From: Nitrobacteraceae bacterium AZCC 2146
GTDB taxonomy: Bacteria > Pseudomonadota > Alphaproteobacteria > Rhizobiales > Xanthobacteraceae
Direction of reading: 5' to 3'
DNA: 64,000 bases
Assembly: GCA_036924855.1 (NCBI GenBank)
Contig: JBAGRP010000001.1
Span: 1,488,001 to 1,552,000 of the forward strand
The position numbers were made by a program, and so were the translations under genes. The notes beneath the pieces were generated by a model. That model saw only the letters and a list, made by a program, of their open reading frames with translations, had not been told where the DNA came from and ran no database searches. Below are positions 12,111-18,363 of the stretch, piece by piece (position 1 is the first letter of the stretch; the number at the start of each line of letters is the position of its first letter).

Positions 12111-12214
12111 CACGTCTCGAAAGTATCCACCATGGACTTCCCAGGAAGGGGGGTTTATAGTATTTTCGACCTCTATCCTGAAGTTTAGAGGCTAGCAACC
12201 ATCTTCCGGTGGCC

Positions 12215-12793
12215 ATGGGACGAGTCAGCTACAGCCAGTCGCTAGAAAATCGCGCGCGTATCGTGAAGGTCGCAAGCGAGCTGTTTCGCGCAAACGGCGT
12301 CGAAGCCGTGACCATAGCGGACGTGATGAAGGCGGCCGGCATGACGCAGGGCGGTTTCTACACGCATTTCGAAACAAAGGATCATCTTGCAGCCGAGGCA
12401 TGTACCCTCAGCTTTGTCACGTCCGTGGAAAATTGGCAGCGTGTGGCCGCCAAAAGCGCCAGCGACGGGCGCAGCGTATTATCGGAACTGGCTCGGTTCT
12501 ACCTTGCGCCAAAAGAGCCTGCGCGCACGTGCCCCATGATAGCGTTCGCCTTCGATGCCGGCGCGCGCGAGCCAGATCATCCGCTGCGACAAGCCTATGA
12601 GGAGGGCGTTAAGTCTCTCTTTGACGCATTTTCGCAGATCGCATCGTCGAACGTAAGCCAATCGTCTCGGGACGAGACGTACTTGCTTTTTGCCGCGATG
12701 GTTGGCTCGAACATGCTTTCGCAAGGCGTCGATGCGGGACGCTGGACGAATACTTTCAAGAAGGTCGTCAGGTCAGCGGCGGAAACGCATTGA
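12215..12793 (+). CDS. TetR/AcrR family regulator
   Basis: 192 residues from the ATG at 12215; a GTG two codons earlier is possible. The N-terminal helix-turn-helix is clear: NRARIVKVASELFRANGVEA then DVMKAAGMTQGGFYTHFETK. The C-terminal domain (TCPMIAFAFDAGAREPDHPL, SNMLSQGVDAG) is of the type found in TetR repressors near SDR and exporter genes. It is divergent from the type III polyketide synthase operon, 731 bases away, and is the likely controller of that operon. Confidence 0.82.
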   Translation: MGRVSYSQSLENRARIVKVASELFRANGVEAVTIADVMKAAGMTQGGFYTHFETKDHLAAEACTLSFVTSVENWQRVAAKSASDGRSVLSELARFYLAPKEPARTCPMIAFAFDAGAREPDHPLRQAYEEGVKSLFDAFSQIASSNVSQSSRDETYLLFAAMVGSNMLSQGVDAGRWTNTFKKVVRSAAETH

Positions 12794-14342: not shown

Positions 14343-14522
14343 ATGTGGGACTCGAGCTGGCTCGAGGCGAGTCTGATGCCCGAGGACGCGCGCCTCGTTC
14401 AAAGTGACATTAAGCCGGAAGACGTTCGGTATGGCCAACTCCTAATTCTGGCGATTGGACTTCCTCTAGTCGTTGTCGGTTACGCCGCTTGGTGGGCGGG
14501 AAAATGGCTTCTCGGTTGCTGA
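14343..14522 (+). CDS. Small single-pass membrane protein
   Basis: 59 residues from the ATG at 14343, which has GGAGGA six bases upstream; a GTG at 14340 is the alternative. The N-terminal 30 residues are acidic and soluble, followed by one hydrophobic helix (LLILAIGLPLVVVGYAAWWA) and a short tail ending WLLGC. It ends 39 bases before the molybdo/tungsto-enzyme start and lies downstream of the promoter at 14208-14237, so the two are probably cotranscribed. No family is recognised. It might anchor or assist the enzyme. Confidence 0.6.
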   Translation: MWDSSWLEASLMPEDARLVQSDIKPEDVRYGQLLILAIGLPLVVVGYAAWWAGKWLLGC

Positions 14523-14561
14523 TGACCAACATCAGATGAAAGCAAAATTGGGAGCATGAGC

Positions 14562-16934
14562 ATGCTTGATCGTATTGTCGAAGCGAAGAAGATTGTAACC
14601 ACGAAGAACGTGGTATGCGGCACCTGTGATGGCTTCTGCCCGGTCCAGGCAAACGTGGTAGATGGTCGCGTGGTCAAGGTGTCGACGCGCAACCACCCCA
14701 TTCTCAAGGATGTGCTTTGCCTCAAGGGAGCCTTCGCACCGAAAGCGTTTGCTAATCCCGATCGCATTCTCTATCCGCTGAAAAGGGTCGGTGCTCGTGG
14801 TGAAGGAAAGTGGCAGCGCGTCAGCTGGGACGACGCGATGGACGATATCACGGACCGGTTGAAGGTCGTCATCGACCGCTATGGTCCCGAAGCGTTTGCA
14901 GTTGCGCACAGCGGGGGCTGGCTGCTCGGCGATAATGGGACGACCCGCCGCTTCATGAATCACATTGGGTCGCCCACCTTCATTACGGCTGTCGCCTACT
15001 GTGCCGGCAACACAGCTGCGGTAAATCGCTTCGTCTACGGCTGGTTTCCCCGTGCCGACATTCTCAATTCAAAATGTGTCGTTCTCATCGGCCATGACCC
15101 GCGCCGTCATAGCTGGACGATGACTTACAAAGCCGTGCGCATGGCTCAGGCCAACGGCGCAAAACTTATCGTTCAGGATCCCCGAAAGAGTGAGAATGCC
15201 GAGCGGGCCGACATTTGGTTGCCGTTGCGGGCCGGAACCGATGCCGCAATGCAGCTCGGGTGGCTCAACGTCATCATCGAGGAGGAACTCTACGACAAGG
15301 AGTTCGTTCGCGACTGGACGGTCGGCTTCGAACAATTGGCTGAACGCGCGCGCGAGTACCACCTCGACCGCGTATCGAGCATCACAGGGGTCGACGCTGA
15401 ATTGATCCGGAAGGCGGCGCGCACCTATGCCACGGCCGAGTCCGCCAGCATTCCGTGGACGCCGATTACCGACCAGCAGGTCTCGAGCACGTCCGCGATC
15501 CGCTTGCAGGCCATGCTGCGCGCTATTACCGGCAACATCGACATCAAGGGTGGCGACCAGTTCGTTGGCTTCAATCCCTCGGTTCGATCGGACTCCGAGA
15601 TTGAAGCTCATCATATGCTGCCTGAAGCGCAGAAAATGAAGCAGCTCGGCGCCGAGCACACGCCGGTCTATACCTATCGCGGCATGCGCCCGTTCGAAGA
15701 TGCGTGCGAGAAGGTGTGGGGTATTCGTTACGCTAATCTGGTCAATGGCTGCTACATGGCCAACCCAATGCGCGTCTTCAAGGCAATGACCGATGGTGAT
15801 CCCTATCCGGTCAAAGCGATGTTTGCGTTATCCAACAATACCCTCATGGCGTTCGCGAATACGCGCCGGGTCTACAACGCCATGATGAATCAGGATCTGA
15901 TCGTCACTTACGAACATATGATGTCGCCAACGGCTGCGTTGTCTGACTACGTCCTGCCCGGTGATGCATGGCTGGAACGGCCCACGATGCAGGCCGGTAT
16001 CAGCGAGCAGGCGATGGAGCCGCCGGGCGAATGCCGGAACATTGTGACGTTCTGGCACGAAGTTGCCAAGCGCATGGGCTTGGGCGAGCAGTTTCCCTGG
16101 AAGAACGCCGAGGAGATGCTCAATTATCGACTGGAGCCGGGTGGCACGAACTGGGACGAGGTTGTCGCGGCTGGACGTACCCCCAATCTTAATCGCGGAC
16201 AGGTTGGTGACCTACCAGAACGGCCGTATCTCAAGACCGGATTTGCAACACCGTCGGGCAAGGTCGAATTGTATTCGTCGACGCTTGAGGAGTTCGGCTT
16301 CGATCCCCTCCCCTATTACCGCGAGGCGGCTCAGCCCAACAAAGAATACCCCATGGCGCTCTTCGTTGGGTGGGCGGAGGACGAGTTCTTCCGCACTGGG
16401 CATCGCAGCATTCCAGAGCTGCGCAAGCGTGCGCCAGACCCTGCATTCTTTGTCAATCGCGCGGAAGCTGAGCGGCTCGGCATGAAGGACGGGGACTGGG
16501 CGCGAATCCGCACATCCACAGGCTCGATTGTGAGCCGCCTCTACACACGCAGCGGTATGCCGACCGGCCTCGTCCGCGTGGGACATGGTTGGTGGAAGCC
16601 GGAGTCGATGGGCGGTCTCGAGAAGATGTCGGGAATGTGGGACTTCAGCGATGCGGTCATCACCGCTGATGACGATCCGGACCTGATCGACATCGAGCAG
16701 GGTGTGCCTCATCTGAAGGGTATGCGGTGTGCCCTCGAAAAAATGAGCGCCGAAGATGTCGCGGCGTTGGAAACGCATTACGGCAAGACCGAAGATATGC
16801 CGCGCGCCGTTGAAGGTAAGGTCCGGCGTCCAAAGTCTGAGACGAGCGATTTCATGTTCGACTCACTCGGGGCAAATGATGTCGAGTTTGACGCCATTCA
16901 GCTCTCGATCCATGGGCGAACGTCTAAAATGTAA
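14562..16934 (+). CDS. Acetylene hydratase-like Mo/W-bis-MGD enzyme (DMSO reductase family)
   Basis: 790 residues. The ATG at 14562 has GGGAG seven bases upstream; an ATG two codons earlier sits too close to it. The N-terminal 4Fe-4S motif is Cys19-x2-Cys22-Asp23-x2-Cys26-x26-Cys53, then Lys55. In Pelobacter acetylene hydratase the Asp directly after the second cluster Cys (Asp13) is catalytic and Cys141 binds tungsten; here Asp23 and Cys147 (AYCAGNTAAVN) fall in the same places. Long stretches such as DRILYPLKRVGARG, GSPTFITAVAYC, SPTAALSDYVLPGDAWLERP and FATPSGKVELYSS recall that enzyme. A 70-residue C-terminal tail is extra. It would hydrate acetylene or a related alkyne to an aldehyde without net redox change. 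Another hydration or redox reaction in the same subfamily is possible. Confidence 0.75.
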   Translation: MLDRIVEAKKIVTTKNVVCGTCDGFCPVQANVVDGRVVKVSTRNHPILKDVLCLKGAFAPKAFANPDRILYPLKRVGARGEGKWQRVSWDDAMDDITDRLKVVIDRYGPEAFAVAHSGGWLLGDNGTTRRFMNHIGSPTFITAVAYCAGNTAAVNRFVYGWFPRADILNSKCVVLIGHDPRRHSWTMTYKAVRMAQANGAKLIVQDPRKSENAERADIWLPLRAGTDAAMQLGWLNVIIEEELYDKEFVRDWTVGFEQLAERAREYHLDRVSSITGVDAELIRKAARTYATAESASIPWTPITDQQVSSTSAIRLQAMLRAITGNIDIKGGDQFVGFNPSVRSDSEIEAHHMLPEAQKMKQLGAEHTPVYTYRGMRPFEDACEKVWGIRYANLVNGCYMANPMRVFKAMTDGDPYPVKAMFALSNNTLMAFANTRRVYNAMMNQDLIVTYEHMMSPTAALSDYVLPGDAWLERPTMQAGISEQAMEPPGECRNIVTFWHEVAKRMGLGEQFPWKNAEEMLNYRLEPGGTNWDEVVAAGRTPNLNRGQVGDLPERPYLKTGFATPSGKVELYSSTLEEFGFDPLPYYREAAQPNKEYPMALFVGWAEDEFFRTGHRSIPELRKRAPDPAFFVNRAEAERLGMKDGDWARIRTSTGSIVSRLYTRSGMPTGLVRVGHGWWKPESMGGLEKMSGMWDFSDAVITADDDPDLIDIEQGVPHLKGMRCALEKMSAEDVAALETHYGKTEDMPRAVEGKVRRPKSETSDFMFDSLGANDVEFDAIQLSIHGRTSKM

Positions 16935-16944
16935 GAGAAAGTTC

Positions 16945-16971
16945 GGGGTGCGCCTGATGAAGGCGCACCCC
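16945..16971 (+). terminator. Ten-base-pair hairpin after the acetylene-hydratase-like gene
   Basis: GGGGTGCGCC (16945-16954) pairs perfectly with GGCGCACCCC (16962-16971) around a TGATGAA loop, 10 bases after the stop. No T-run follows (TGACACTTT), so it may stabilise the upstream message or attenuate rather than fully stop transcription into moeA. Confidence 0.55.
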
Positions 16972-17106
16972 TGACACTTTGGATACTACTCTCATCCATT
17001 TTAGCTCCCGGAATCTGCCTCTGAAGAGCTTGATGATGGGTGCCAATGGGGGACTCAAGATCCCGCAAGCCGCATCTGATGACGCGTTGGTGCCGGACAA
17101 GAGGCA

Positions 17107-18363
17107 ATGGCTAATACAGCAAGCGCGCTTGATTGCGATGATGGATCGAAAGGGGACGCCAAGCGTCCTCGGCCACTGCTGTCGCTGAACGATGCCATTG
17201 ATATCGCCAGTTCGTTTTCTAGGGCAGTTGAGCGAACCGAAGTTATCCCCCTTGCGGAAGTAAATGGCCGTGAACTCAGCTGCGACGTGGCAGCTCACCA
17301 CGACCTTCCCCTGTTTGATCAATCGGCGATGGACGGTTATGCGCTGTCAGGAGACGCCGAAACCTACGAATTGTCTCCCTTGGCTGGCACGCGTGCGGGT
17401 GATCGTCCCGGCTTTGTCTATCCAGGCCAAGCGATGAAGATCGCAACGGGGGGCTTCATGCCCGCTGGAGCCGATCGCGTTGCGCTCCAGGAGCATACGG
17501 TCCAGCGAAACGGAAAGCTCATTGTAAAAGGACCCCTGGAGCGAGGCTCCAATATCCGCTTGCGCGGGGAAGACGTCCAAAAAGACGATTCTATTCTGCC
17601 AAAGGGATCGAGGTTGGATCCGCAGAAGATCGCATTGCTCGCCGCCCAAGGGGTGGGGCGTGTCGAGGTGCGCGGCAGGCCACGGGTGGCCGTGATCTCT
17701 TCTGGCGATGAGCTTCGTCAGCCTGGCGATGTTCTTCGCGCCGGCAACATTTACGACAGCAATAGGCCCATGCTCCTTGCATTAGCGGAGAAAGCCGGCG
17801 CCGCGGTCACCGATGCCGGATGTGTGGCCGATGATGTGCAGGCTGTTGCCAACGCCATCGCGAGACTGTCGCAATCAAACGATTTTGTCCTCCTCAGCGG
17901 AGGCTCATCTCATGGAGATGCGGATATGACGCGTGCGGCGCTACTTTGCGCGGGTGCCGCCGCCGAAGAGCTCAAGATTGCAATCAAGCCGGGCAAACCG
18001 GCAGTCGTTGGCAGATTGGGCGGAGCTTCGGTACTGGGTGTTCCCGGCAATCCTTTCGCGGCGTTCGTCTCTTGGCTCACTTTGGGCCGGTCGATGTTGG
18101 GTATTATGCTTGGAATTCCCTCCGAACTGTTATCGAGAGCTCGCAAACTCCCGGTTTCCAATACGCTTCAGCGACGGCCCGGGAGAACCGAATTCGTGCC
18201 GGCCAGAATCGTTTGGGACGAAAGCGAAGAGAGACTTGAGTTTCTTGGCCGTGGTGGATCTGCACGCCTATTGCCTCTTTCCCGAGCGGATGGTCTTGCT
18301 TGGGTTGAAGCGGATCGCGGCAGCGTTCAAGCGGGTGAACGCGTTCGCTTCATTCCATTCTGA
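17107..18363 (+). CDS. moeA: Molybdopterin molybdenumtransferase MoeA
   Basis: 418 residues. MoeA inserts the metal into adenylated molybdopterin. Visible are the N-terminal domain (FDQSAMDGYAL near residue 80; IATGGFMPAGADRVALQEHT near 120), the MPT-binding domain (VAVISSGDELRQPGD near 198; LLSGGSSHGDADMT near 265; LGVPGNPFAAF near 315) and the C-terminal beta domain. Length is normal. It lies 172 bases downstream of the acetylene-hydratase-like gene on the same strand, so it is probably a copy dedicated to that enzyme rather than the housekeeping moeA, which normally sits with other cofactor genes. Confidence 0.88.
   Translation: MANTASALDCDDGSKGDAKRPRPLLSLNDAIDIASSFSRAVERTEVIPLAEVNGRELSCDVAAHHDLPLFDQSAMDGYALSGDAETYELSPLAGTRAGDRPGFVYPGQAMKIATGGFMPAGADRVALQEHTVQRNGKLIVKGPLERGSNIRLRGEDVQKDDSILPKGSRLDPQKIALLAAQGVGRVEVRGRPRVAVISSGDELRQPGDVLRAGNIYDSNRPMLLALAEKAGAAVTDAGCVADDVQAVANAIARLSQSNDFVLLSGGSSHGDADMTRAALLCAGAAAEELKIAIKPGKPAVVGRLGGASVLGVPGNPFAAFVSWLTLGRSMLGIMLGIPSELLSRARKLPVSNTLQRRPGRTEFVPARIVWDESEERLEFLGRGGSARLLPLSRADGLAWVEADRGSVQAGERVRFIPF

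What the first reader, a model, noticed from the sequence alone, without database searches (positions are those of the whole stretch)
14343..18363. Acetylene-hydratase-like tungsten/molybdenum enzyme locus in an apparently aerobic alphaproteobacterium
The 790-residue enzyme has the unusual CxxCD arrangement (Asp23 directly after the second cluster Cys) and Cys147 in AYCAGNTA, matching catalytic Asp13 and metal ligand Cys141 of Pelobacter acetylene hydratase, with long similar stretches across the protein. It is preceded by an unknown 59-residue membrane protein and followed by a private moeA, with no ferredoxin or membrane subunit as redox relatives would need. That fits a non-redox hydratase. 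I recall a report of acetylene use by a Bradyrhizobium but cannot verify it here.
Basis: partly seen in the sequence, partly recalled or inferred. Interest (0 to 1): 0.88.

Follow-up and report, generated by a model that had tools for sequence, protein, structure and literature searches.

The report
Acetylene-hydratase relative with a remodelled pocket
This bacterium carries a molybdenum/tungsten-type enzyme built like acetylene hydratase and keeping its key catalytic residues, but its substrate pocket is altered, so it probably does similar water-adding chemistry on something other than acetylene.

Summary
The 790/792-residue protein is a close relative of Pelobacter acetylene hydratase (Ahy): best solved match (637 bits against 232 for the next), 44% identity, model within 1.5 A over 706 residues. 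The CxxCD aspartate and ligand cysteine are there. Trees separate it from the redox rows sampled.

"Acetylene hydratase" is only partly supported. Asp and Cys mark the whole AH-like family (Asp in 244 of 253 rows, the other 9 gapped), so they do not reveal the substrate. The protein lies outside the Ahy clade. Of six pocket-ring residues (list recalled), Trp179 and Trp293 remain; Ile14, Ile113, Ile142 and Trp472 are lost, and Arg606 too. Missing Fe-S neighbours do not help: known Ahy genes reportedly have such neighbours.

Contrast: Rhodococcus opacus DSM 44186 (Tuebingen soil) has an AH-like plasmid gene keeping the ring (Leu for Ile at 142), with fdxA nearby; a better candidate for the aerobic acetylene hydratase.

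Best reading: a probably Mo-containing hydratase-type enzyme for another unsaturated substrate. moeA is a second genomic copy, not found beside relatives.

The parts
14556..16934 (+). AH-like Mo/W-bisMGD enzyme with one [4Fe-4S] cluster motif, 792 aa (790 aa if started at 14562)
14628..14630 (+). codon of Asp23 (Ahy Asp13), directly after the second cluster Cys
   Evidence: sequence; alignments
15000..15002 (+). codon of Cys147 (Ahy Cys141, metal ligand)
   Evidence: sequence; alignments
14343..14522 (+). 59-aa ORF, membrane span judged by eye, rare; relation to the enzyme unknown
   Evidence: not found in 12 clade III and 8 clade II loci at E 1e-5
16945..16971 (+). perfect 10-bp inverted repeat 10 bases after the enzyme's stop codon; possible transcript end or attenuator before moeA, no T run
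   Evidence: sequence and fold; not reported as a terminator by the pattern scan
17107..18363 (+). moeA (molybdopterin molybdotransferase), second full copy in the genome
12809..13312 (-). HxlR-family regulator; relatives lie about 4 kb upstream of the Cupriavidus orthologue (L022) and directly beside the AH-like gene in 3 of 8 clade II loci (L040, L042, L043)
12209..12793 (+). TetR-family regulator; a 36% relative lies in the Cupriavidus AH-like locus

Best explanation
A stand-alone bis-MGD/[4Fe-4S] enzyme of the acetylene-hydratase-like (AH-like) subfamily, probably cytosolic and probably loaded with molybdenum in this host. It most likely uses the Ahy machinery: the reduced metal held by Cys147, a metal-bound water, and Asp23 as the second-shell acid/base that adds (or removes) water at an unsaturated carbon, with the Fe-S cluster setting the redox state rather than passing electrons to a partner. 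Because the pocket ring is remodelled, its natural substrate is probably not acetylene but a different, likely bulkier or more polar, unsaturated or hydroxylated compound. Shown: family, fold, conserved residues, pocket differences, no ferredoxin-type gene nearby. Inferred: location, metal, non-redox chemistry, water addition and substrate class.
Against: No experiment. Catechol dehydroxylases, which are reductive, are described as most closely related to Ahy (PMC7028382, passages), so a redox function nearby in the family is possible, and a partner could be encoded elsewhere. A 2025 review even proposes an internal redox cycle for Ahy (PMC12096430, passages). Ring positions vary inside the Ahy clade too, for example in the 82% Ahy relative P0122, so losing ring residues does not by itself exclude acetylene. 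The membership of the ring and the role of Ile142 are recalled, not read, apart from Trp179 and Trp472. Known Ahy genes reportedly have Fe-S neighbours, so their absence here is not a clean sign of non-redox work. The model has no metal and no coordinates were available, so the Asp-metal distance was not measured.
Confidence: 0.5

Rival explanations
1. A true acetylene hydratase: acetylene to acetaldehyde, then acetate and acetyl-CoA, with the altered pocket tolerated.
For: Asp/Cys/Trp179/Trp293 kept. The 81%-identical Cupriavidus sp. 2SB gene directly follows an aldehyde dehydrogenase gene, with an ActP-type symporter (788 bits, cut-off 750) upstream and an acyl-CoA synthetase (726 bits, cut-off 677) downstream, the kinds of genes an acetaldehyde route would need. 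Ahy clade members themselves vary at ring positions.
Against: Outside the Ahy clade. Four of six recalled ring positions, the Trp472 loop and Arg606 changed. R. opacus DSM 44186, which I think is an aerobic acetylene-degrading isolate (recalled), has another AH-like gene with the ring kept. The Cupriavidus aldehyde dehydrogenase reaches no curated cut-off and is far under the acetaldehyde dehydrogenase ExaC one (272.8 of 900 bits). Among the neighbours that were scanned (a chosen part), no aldehyde dehydrogenase or acetate gene lies near the window gene or the other clade III copies. No Fe-S neighbour as reported for known Ahy genes. Ahy is reported as specific for acetylene (PMC4653830 passage), and I recall that I142A cripples it, the residue found here.
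Confidence: 0.2
2. A redox enzyme, for example a reductive dehydroxylase or dehydrogenase, served by a partner or soluble carrier encoded elsewhere.
For: The Fe-S cysteines and Lys55 (recalled as the electron route in redox relatives) are kept. Catechol dehydroxylases are described as most closely related to Ahy, and some Gordonibacter ones as smaller than the multi-subunit Dadh (PMC7028382 passages). An MPT enzyme with an AH-related module that forms C-S bonds is known (PMC9516567 passages).
Against: No ferredoxin-type motif ORF in any of the 21 AH-like loci scanned, window included, L069 aside. Redox rows included in the trees, among them polysulfide reductase, fall outside.
Confidence: 0.22
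3. A non-hydratase, non-redox activity (isomerisation, sulfur or hydroxyl transfer) or a decayed, non-functional relative.
For: One relative in the same order (53% identical) is broken by two in-frame stops (L049); an enzyme with an AH-related module does other chemistry.
Against: The window ORF is intact, with the cofactor residues conserved, and has 79-84% identical relatives of full length elsewhere.
Confidence: 0.08

Closest known systems
Acetylene hydratase Ahy of Syntrophotalea (Pelobacter) acetylenica, PDB 2E7Z
   Same: Fold (1.5 A over 706 residues), 44% identity, CxxCD motif, Lys48, Cys141, Trp179, Trp293
   Different: Outside the Ahy clade; Gly14, Gly113, Tyr140, Ala142, Ala606, Trp472 loop deleted; some 60-70 extra C-terminal residues; no Fe-S neighbour gene
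Uncharacterised AH-like proteins of clade II (mostly about 720-770 aa, e.g. the second copy in Cupriavidus sp. 2SB and Bradyrhizobium P0214, P0230, P0232)
   Same: Same core residues; clade III arises from within this group; HxlR regulators near both
   Different: Clade II has Trp113 and Arg606 in 86 of 86 rows and Leu140 in 71 of 86, and keeps the 472 loop in the 4 rows displayed
AH-like protein of Rhodococcus opacus DSM 44186 plasmid NZ_CP082159.1
   Same: AH-like family, 40% identical
   Different: Keeps Ile14, Ile113, Trp472 and has Leu142; fdxA and moeZ nearby; branches outside Ahy plus clades II and III at 96/93
Catechol dehydroxylases (Dadh, Hcdh, Cldh)
   Same: Described as most closely related to Ahy (PMC7028382 passages)
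   Different: Not compared by sequence here

Membership tests
AH-like subfamily of the DMSO reductase (MopB) superfamily | Closest solved relative and fold is Ahy | tested here: met
AH-like subfamily of the DMSO reductase (MopB) superfamily | Asp13 after the second cluster Cys and the Cys141 ligand (both given as conserved in the subfamily in PMC12096430, passages) | tested here: met
   D23 and C147
AH-like subfamily of the DMSO reductase (MopB) superfamily | Groups with Ahy apart from redox branches | tested here: met
   with the few redox rows available; a larger published tree notes weak support for AH monophyly (PMC10100899 passage)
Acetylene hydratase proper | Lies inside the Ahy clade | tested here: not met
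   Ahy clade 97/95 without it; window in clade III 100/100
Acetylene hydratase proper | Hydrophobic ring Ile14, Ile113, Ile142, Trp179, Trp293, Trp472 (list recalled; Trp179 and Trp472 also named in PMC12096430) | tested here: not met
   2 of 6 kept; the ring is not strict within the Ahy clade either
Acetylene hydratase proper | Hydrates acetylene | not testable with these tools
   needs an assay
Acetylene hydratase proper | Tungsten cofactor | not testable with these tools
   indirect only: ModA found, no WtpA, one PF12849 protein not resolved between PstS and TupA
Polysulfide/thiosulfate reductase (PsrA/PhsA) | Groups with PsrA | tested here: not met
   PsrA is a long branch; NCBIfam PhsA 273.7 bits under its cut-off of 694
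Polysulfide/thiosulfate reductase (PsrA/PhsA) | Fe-S partner gene beside it | tested here: not met
   no ferredoxin-type motif ORF in window 4001-28000; a membrane partner was not sought systematically
Catechol dehydroxylases | Groups with Dadh/Cldh | not tested
   no such sequence was fetched

The most novel reading that the evidence does not exclude
Clade III is a proteobacterial class of stand-alone molybdenum hydratases that use the Ahy Asp/Cys pair on larger unsaturated substrates, which would be a second kind of non-redox Mo/W reaction.
Probability: 0.3. Interest if true: 0.8.

Novelty: new variant of a known kind. Interest (0 to 1): 0.5.

Why it matters
A 2025 review (PMC12096430, passages) calls Ahy the only known Mo/W enzyme not catalysing a redox reaction and says its similar relatives are not biochemically characterised; a 2021 paper says no enzyme from aerobic acetylenotrophs had been characterised (PMC7858054 passage). 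This locus shows that the catalytic pair is far more widespread than the pocket, so Asp13/Cys141 alone should not be used to call acetylene hydratases, for example in HMM surveys or in arguments about ancient acetylene use. The R. opacus gene gives a concrete candidate for the aerobic enzyme, and the two together make an informative pair for assay.

Tried and rejected
Membership of the sampled redox branches was rejected on score, structure and trees. A 'private moeA operon' was weakened: moeA and the 59-aa protein were not found in 12 clade III and 8 clade II loci at E 1e-5, and a strong hairpin lies between enzyme gene and moeA. A common operon for clade III was sought and not seen; four of those 12 loci (L062, L063, L065, L066) end within about 0.5 kb of the gene on one side, and only a chosen part of the neighbours was scanned by Pfam. 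tRNA and Rfam searches gave nothing; promoter-like and terminator-like matches were near shuffle means.

Literature: papers seen only as passages are PMC7858054, PMC7028382, PMC10100899, PMC12096430, PMC9516567, PMC4653830; others only in listings. No held paper joins acetylenotroph and Bradyrhizobium or Ile142 and acetylene hydratase. A guessed DOI and three PMC ids of cited papers were not held. 'DSM 44186' has no hit; a search for two strain names and the plasmid name hit one paper, by the plasmid name, in whose main text '44186' was not found.

Caveats: the protein lists show only the best 120 hits of each search, so clade counts are of listed hits. The 253 rows include near-duplicates (P0001 and the window protein; P0008 and L022a, same strain; P0121 and Ahy, 99%). 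Larger genome draws scored only the best 2-3 candidates per genome. Three of the 14 non-family rows also show D in the Asp13 column (247 D in 267); for L007 the true motif is CPHCGTGC, so that one is a misalignment; L001 and L008 gave no such motif and were dropped from the tree, with L004 and L025. Measuring the Asp23-metal distance was not possible, as no coordinates are given.
Full report
What is there. The window carries, on the plus strand, a 59-aa ORF (14343-14522), a 792-aa ORF (14556-16934; 790 aa from ATG 14562) and a 418-aa moeA (17107-18363). The 792-aa protein has the three Pfam domains of the molybdopterin oxidoreductase superfamily; none of the 25 NCBIfam models listed (of 26 matched) reaches its cut-off.

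Trees. A 69-row quick tree puts all 60 AH-like rows on one side of a branch (98) from nine redox or distant rows; the Ahy clade (18 rows) has 97, clade III with the window (25 rows) 100, and clade III arises within clade II, the two together standing next to the Ahy clade at 90. A careful 42-row tree repeats this: Ahy clade 97/95, clade III 100/100, II+III 99/99, all AH-like 100/98 against four redox rows. Polysulfide reductase and an own-genome paralogue are long branches and catechol dehydroxylases are absent. A larger published tree also reports weak support for AH monophyly (PMC10100899, passage), so the root of the family is unsettled.

Core residues against pocket. I mapped 267 proteins on Ahy numbering: 253 AH-like (44 Ahy clade, 86 clade II, 123 clade III; sets assigned from hit lists and the tree) and 14 others. 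Asp13 is D in 41 of 44, 86 of 86 and 117 of 123, the other 9 being gaps. Lys48 is K in 42 of 44 (2 gaps), 86 of 86 and 123 of 123. Cys141, Trp179 and Trp293 are present in 253 of 253. The rest of the pocket differs by clade. Clade III has Tyr140 in 122 of 123; position 142 is Met 88, Ala 31, other 4; position 606 is Pro 100, Arg 15, Ala 7, Ser 1, against Arg606 in 37 of 44 Ahy-clade and 86 of 86 clade II rows. No clade III row has Trp472, and the loop is deleted in all 9 clade III rows displayed. The window and its nearest rows (11 rows, two pairs of them near-duplicates) have Gly14, Tyr140 and Ala142 throughout and Gly113 in 10 (Ser in 1). That Ile14, Ile113, Ile142, Trp179, Trp293 and Trp472 form the acetylene pocket, and that I142A damages Ahy, is recalled from papers not held; Trp179 and Trp472 are named in PMC12096430. 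Against this reading, the Ahy clade itself varies at 14, 113, 142 and 472: only Ahy and its 99% cluster P0121 have Ile14+Ile113, or Ile113+Trp472, among the 253 rows.

An unexpected comparator. tblastn of the window protein against 72,556 plasmid records found one record at E 1e-120: Rhodococcus opacus DSM 44186, plasmid NZ_CP082159.1, source soil, Tuebingen. At 1e-50 there are 14 further records, 27-31% identical, ten of them E. coli, mostly annotated dmsA. The R. opacus protein (786 aa) is 42% identical to Ahy and 40% to the window protein. It has Ile14, Ile113, Leu140, Leu142, Trp179, Trp293, Trp472 and Lys606; the 113 region has a nearby gap, so that column is less certain. It sits with a ferritin-like gene, fdxA, moeZ and several transposase or integrase genes. 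I recall that aerobic acetylene-degrading R. opacus isolates were described in 1997 and think this strain is one of them, but could not confirm it. The R. opacus acetylene hydratase is reported as Mo-dependent and not cross-reactive with anti-Ahy antibodies, and the same 2021 paper already notes BLAST similarity between its acetylene hydratases and molybdopterin oxidoreductase genes of R. opacus (PMC7858054 passage); I could not see whether this gene is among them. If it is the enzyme, ring plus Asp/Cys, rather than Asp/Cys alone, tracks acetylene.

Surroundings. HxlR and TetR regulators lie upstream in the window; relatives of both occur in the Cupriavidus sp. 2SB locus, which carries the 81% orthologue and a clade II copy. 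There the orthologue directly follows an aldehyde dehydrogenase gene, with an ActP-type symporter upstream and an acyl-CoA synthetase downstream beyond two genes on the other strand. That would suit an aldehyde product, though the aldehyde dehydrogenase reaches no curated cut-off. This is one locus; the neighbours scanned in other clade III loci are unrelated to one another (MTHFR, URO-D and a corrinoid activator; acyl-CoA dehydrogenases; MMPL or RND exporters; RuBisCO-like and others). No ferredoxin-type motif ORF was found in window 4001-28000, 12 clade III loci or 8 clade II loci, while the scan found the Rhodococcus fdxA. This differs from the Fe-S neighbours reported for known acetylene hydratase genes (PMC7858054 passage). 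moeA and the 59-aa gene were not found in those 20 loci. The genome holds a second full moeA, a ModA over cut-off and no WtpA hit.

Distribution. So the gene is an accessory, patchy trait here, while clade III is well established in one small order of the same class.

Judgement. The gene is an intact AH-like enzyme. I commit to an Asp/Cys hydratase-type enzyme with another substrate at 0.5, acetylene hydratase at 0.2, redox function at 0.22.

Noticed in passing
L069:12001-14361 (NZ_CP082159.1, R. opacus DSM 44186): AH-like gene keeping the Ahy pocket ring (Leu for Ile at 142) on a plasmid, beside fdxA, moeZ and mobile elements; candidate for the aerobic Mo acetylene hydratase.
   Followed up: partly
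L022:5063-22187 (Cupriavidus sp. 2SB): Two AH-like genes about 7.6 kb apart with aldehyde dehydrogenase, ActP-type symporter, acyl-CoA synthetase and HxlR/TetR/MarR-type regulators (MarR recognised by eye).
   Followed up: partly
L037:3230-12280: Clade III gene near a RACo-type corrinoid activator, a URO-D-type protein and MTHFR, a combination that suggests corrinoid methyl transfer.
   Followed up: no
order of G125 (G125, G1341, G1342, G1344, G1345, G1346): 6 of 9 genomes have matches at 65-78% identity, two of them twice.
   Followed up: partly
L049 (G1013:C1:30533-32704): A 53% relative interrupted by one TGA and one TAG; described only.
   Followed up: no
window:10431-11753: Type III polyketide synthase (chalcone synthase family), near an MFS-like gene (by eye) and regulators.
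   Followed up: no
window:27665-37512: Lactate permease, FMN-dependent dehydrogenase, FAA hydrolase, and GlcF/GlcD-like genes: a 2-hydroxy-acid utilisation block.
   Followed up: no
G000:C1:7625160-7626620: Own-genome molybdopterin enzyme with one in-frame TGA, possibly a selenocysteine formate dehydrogenase.
   Followed up: no
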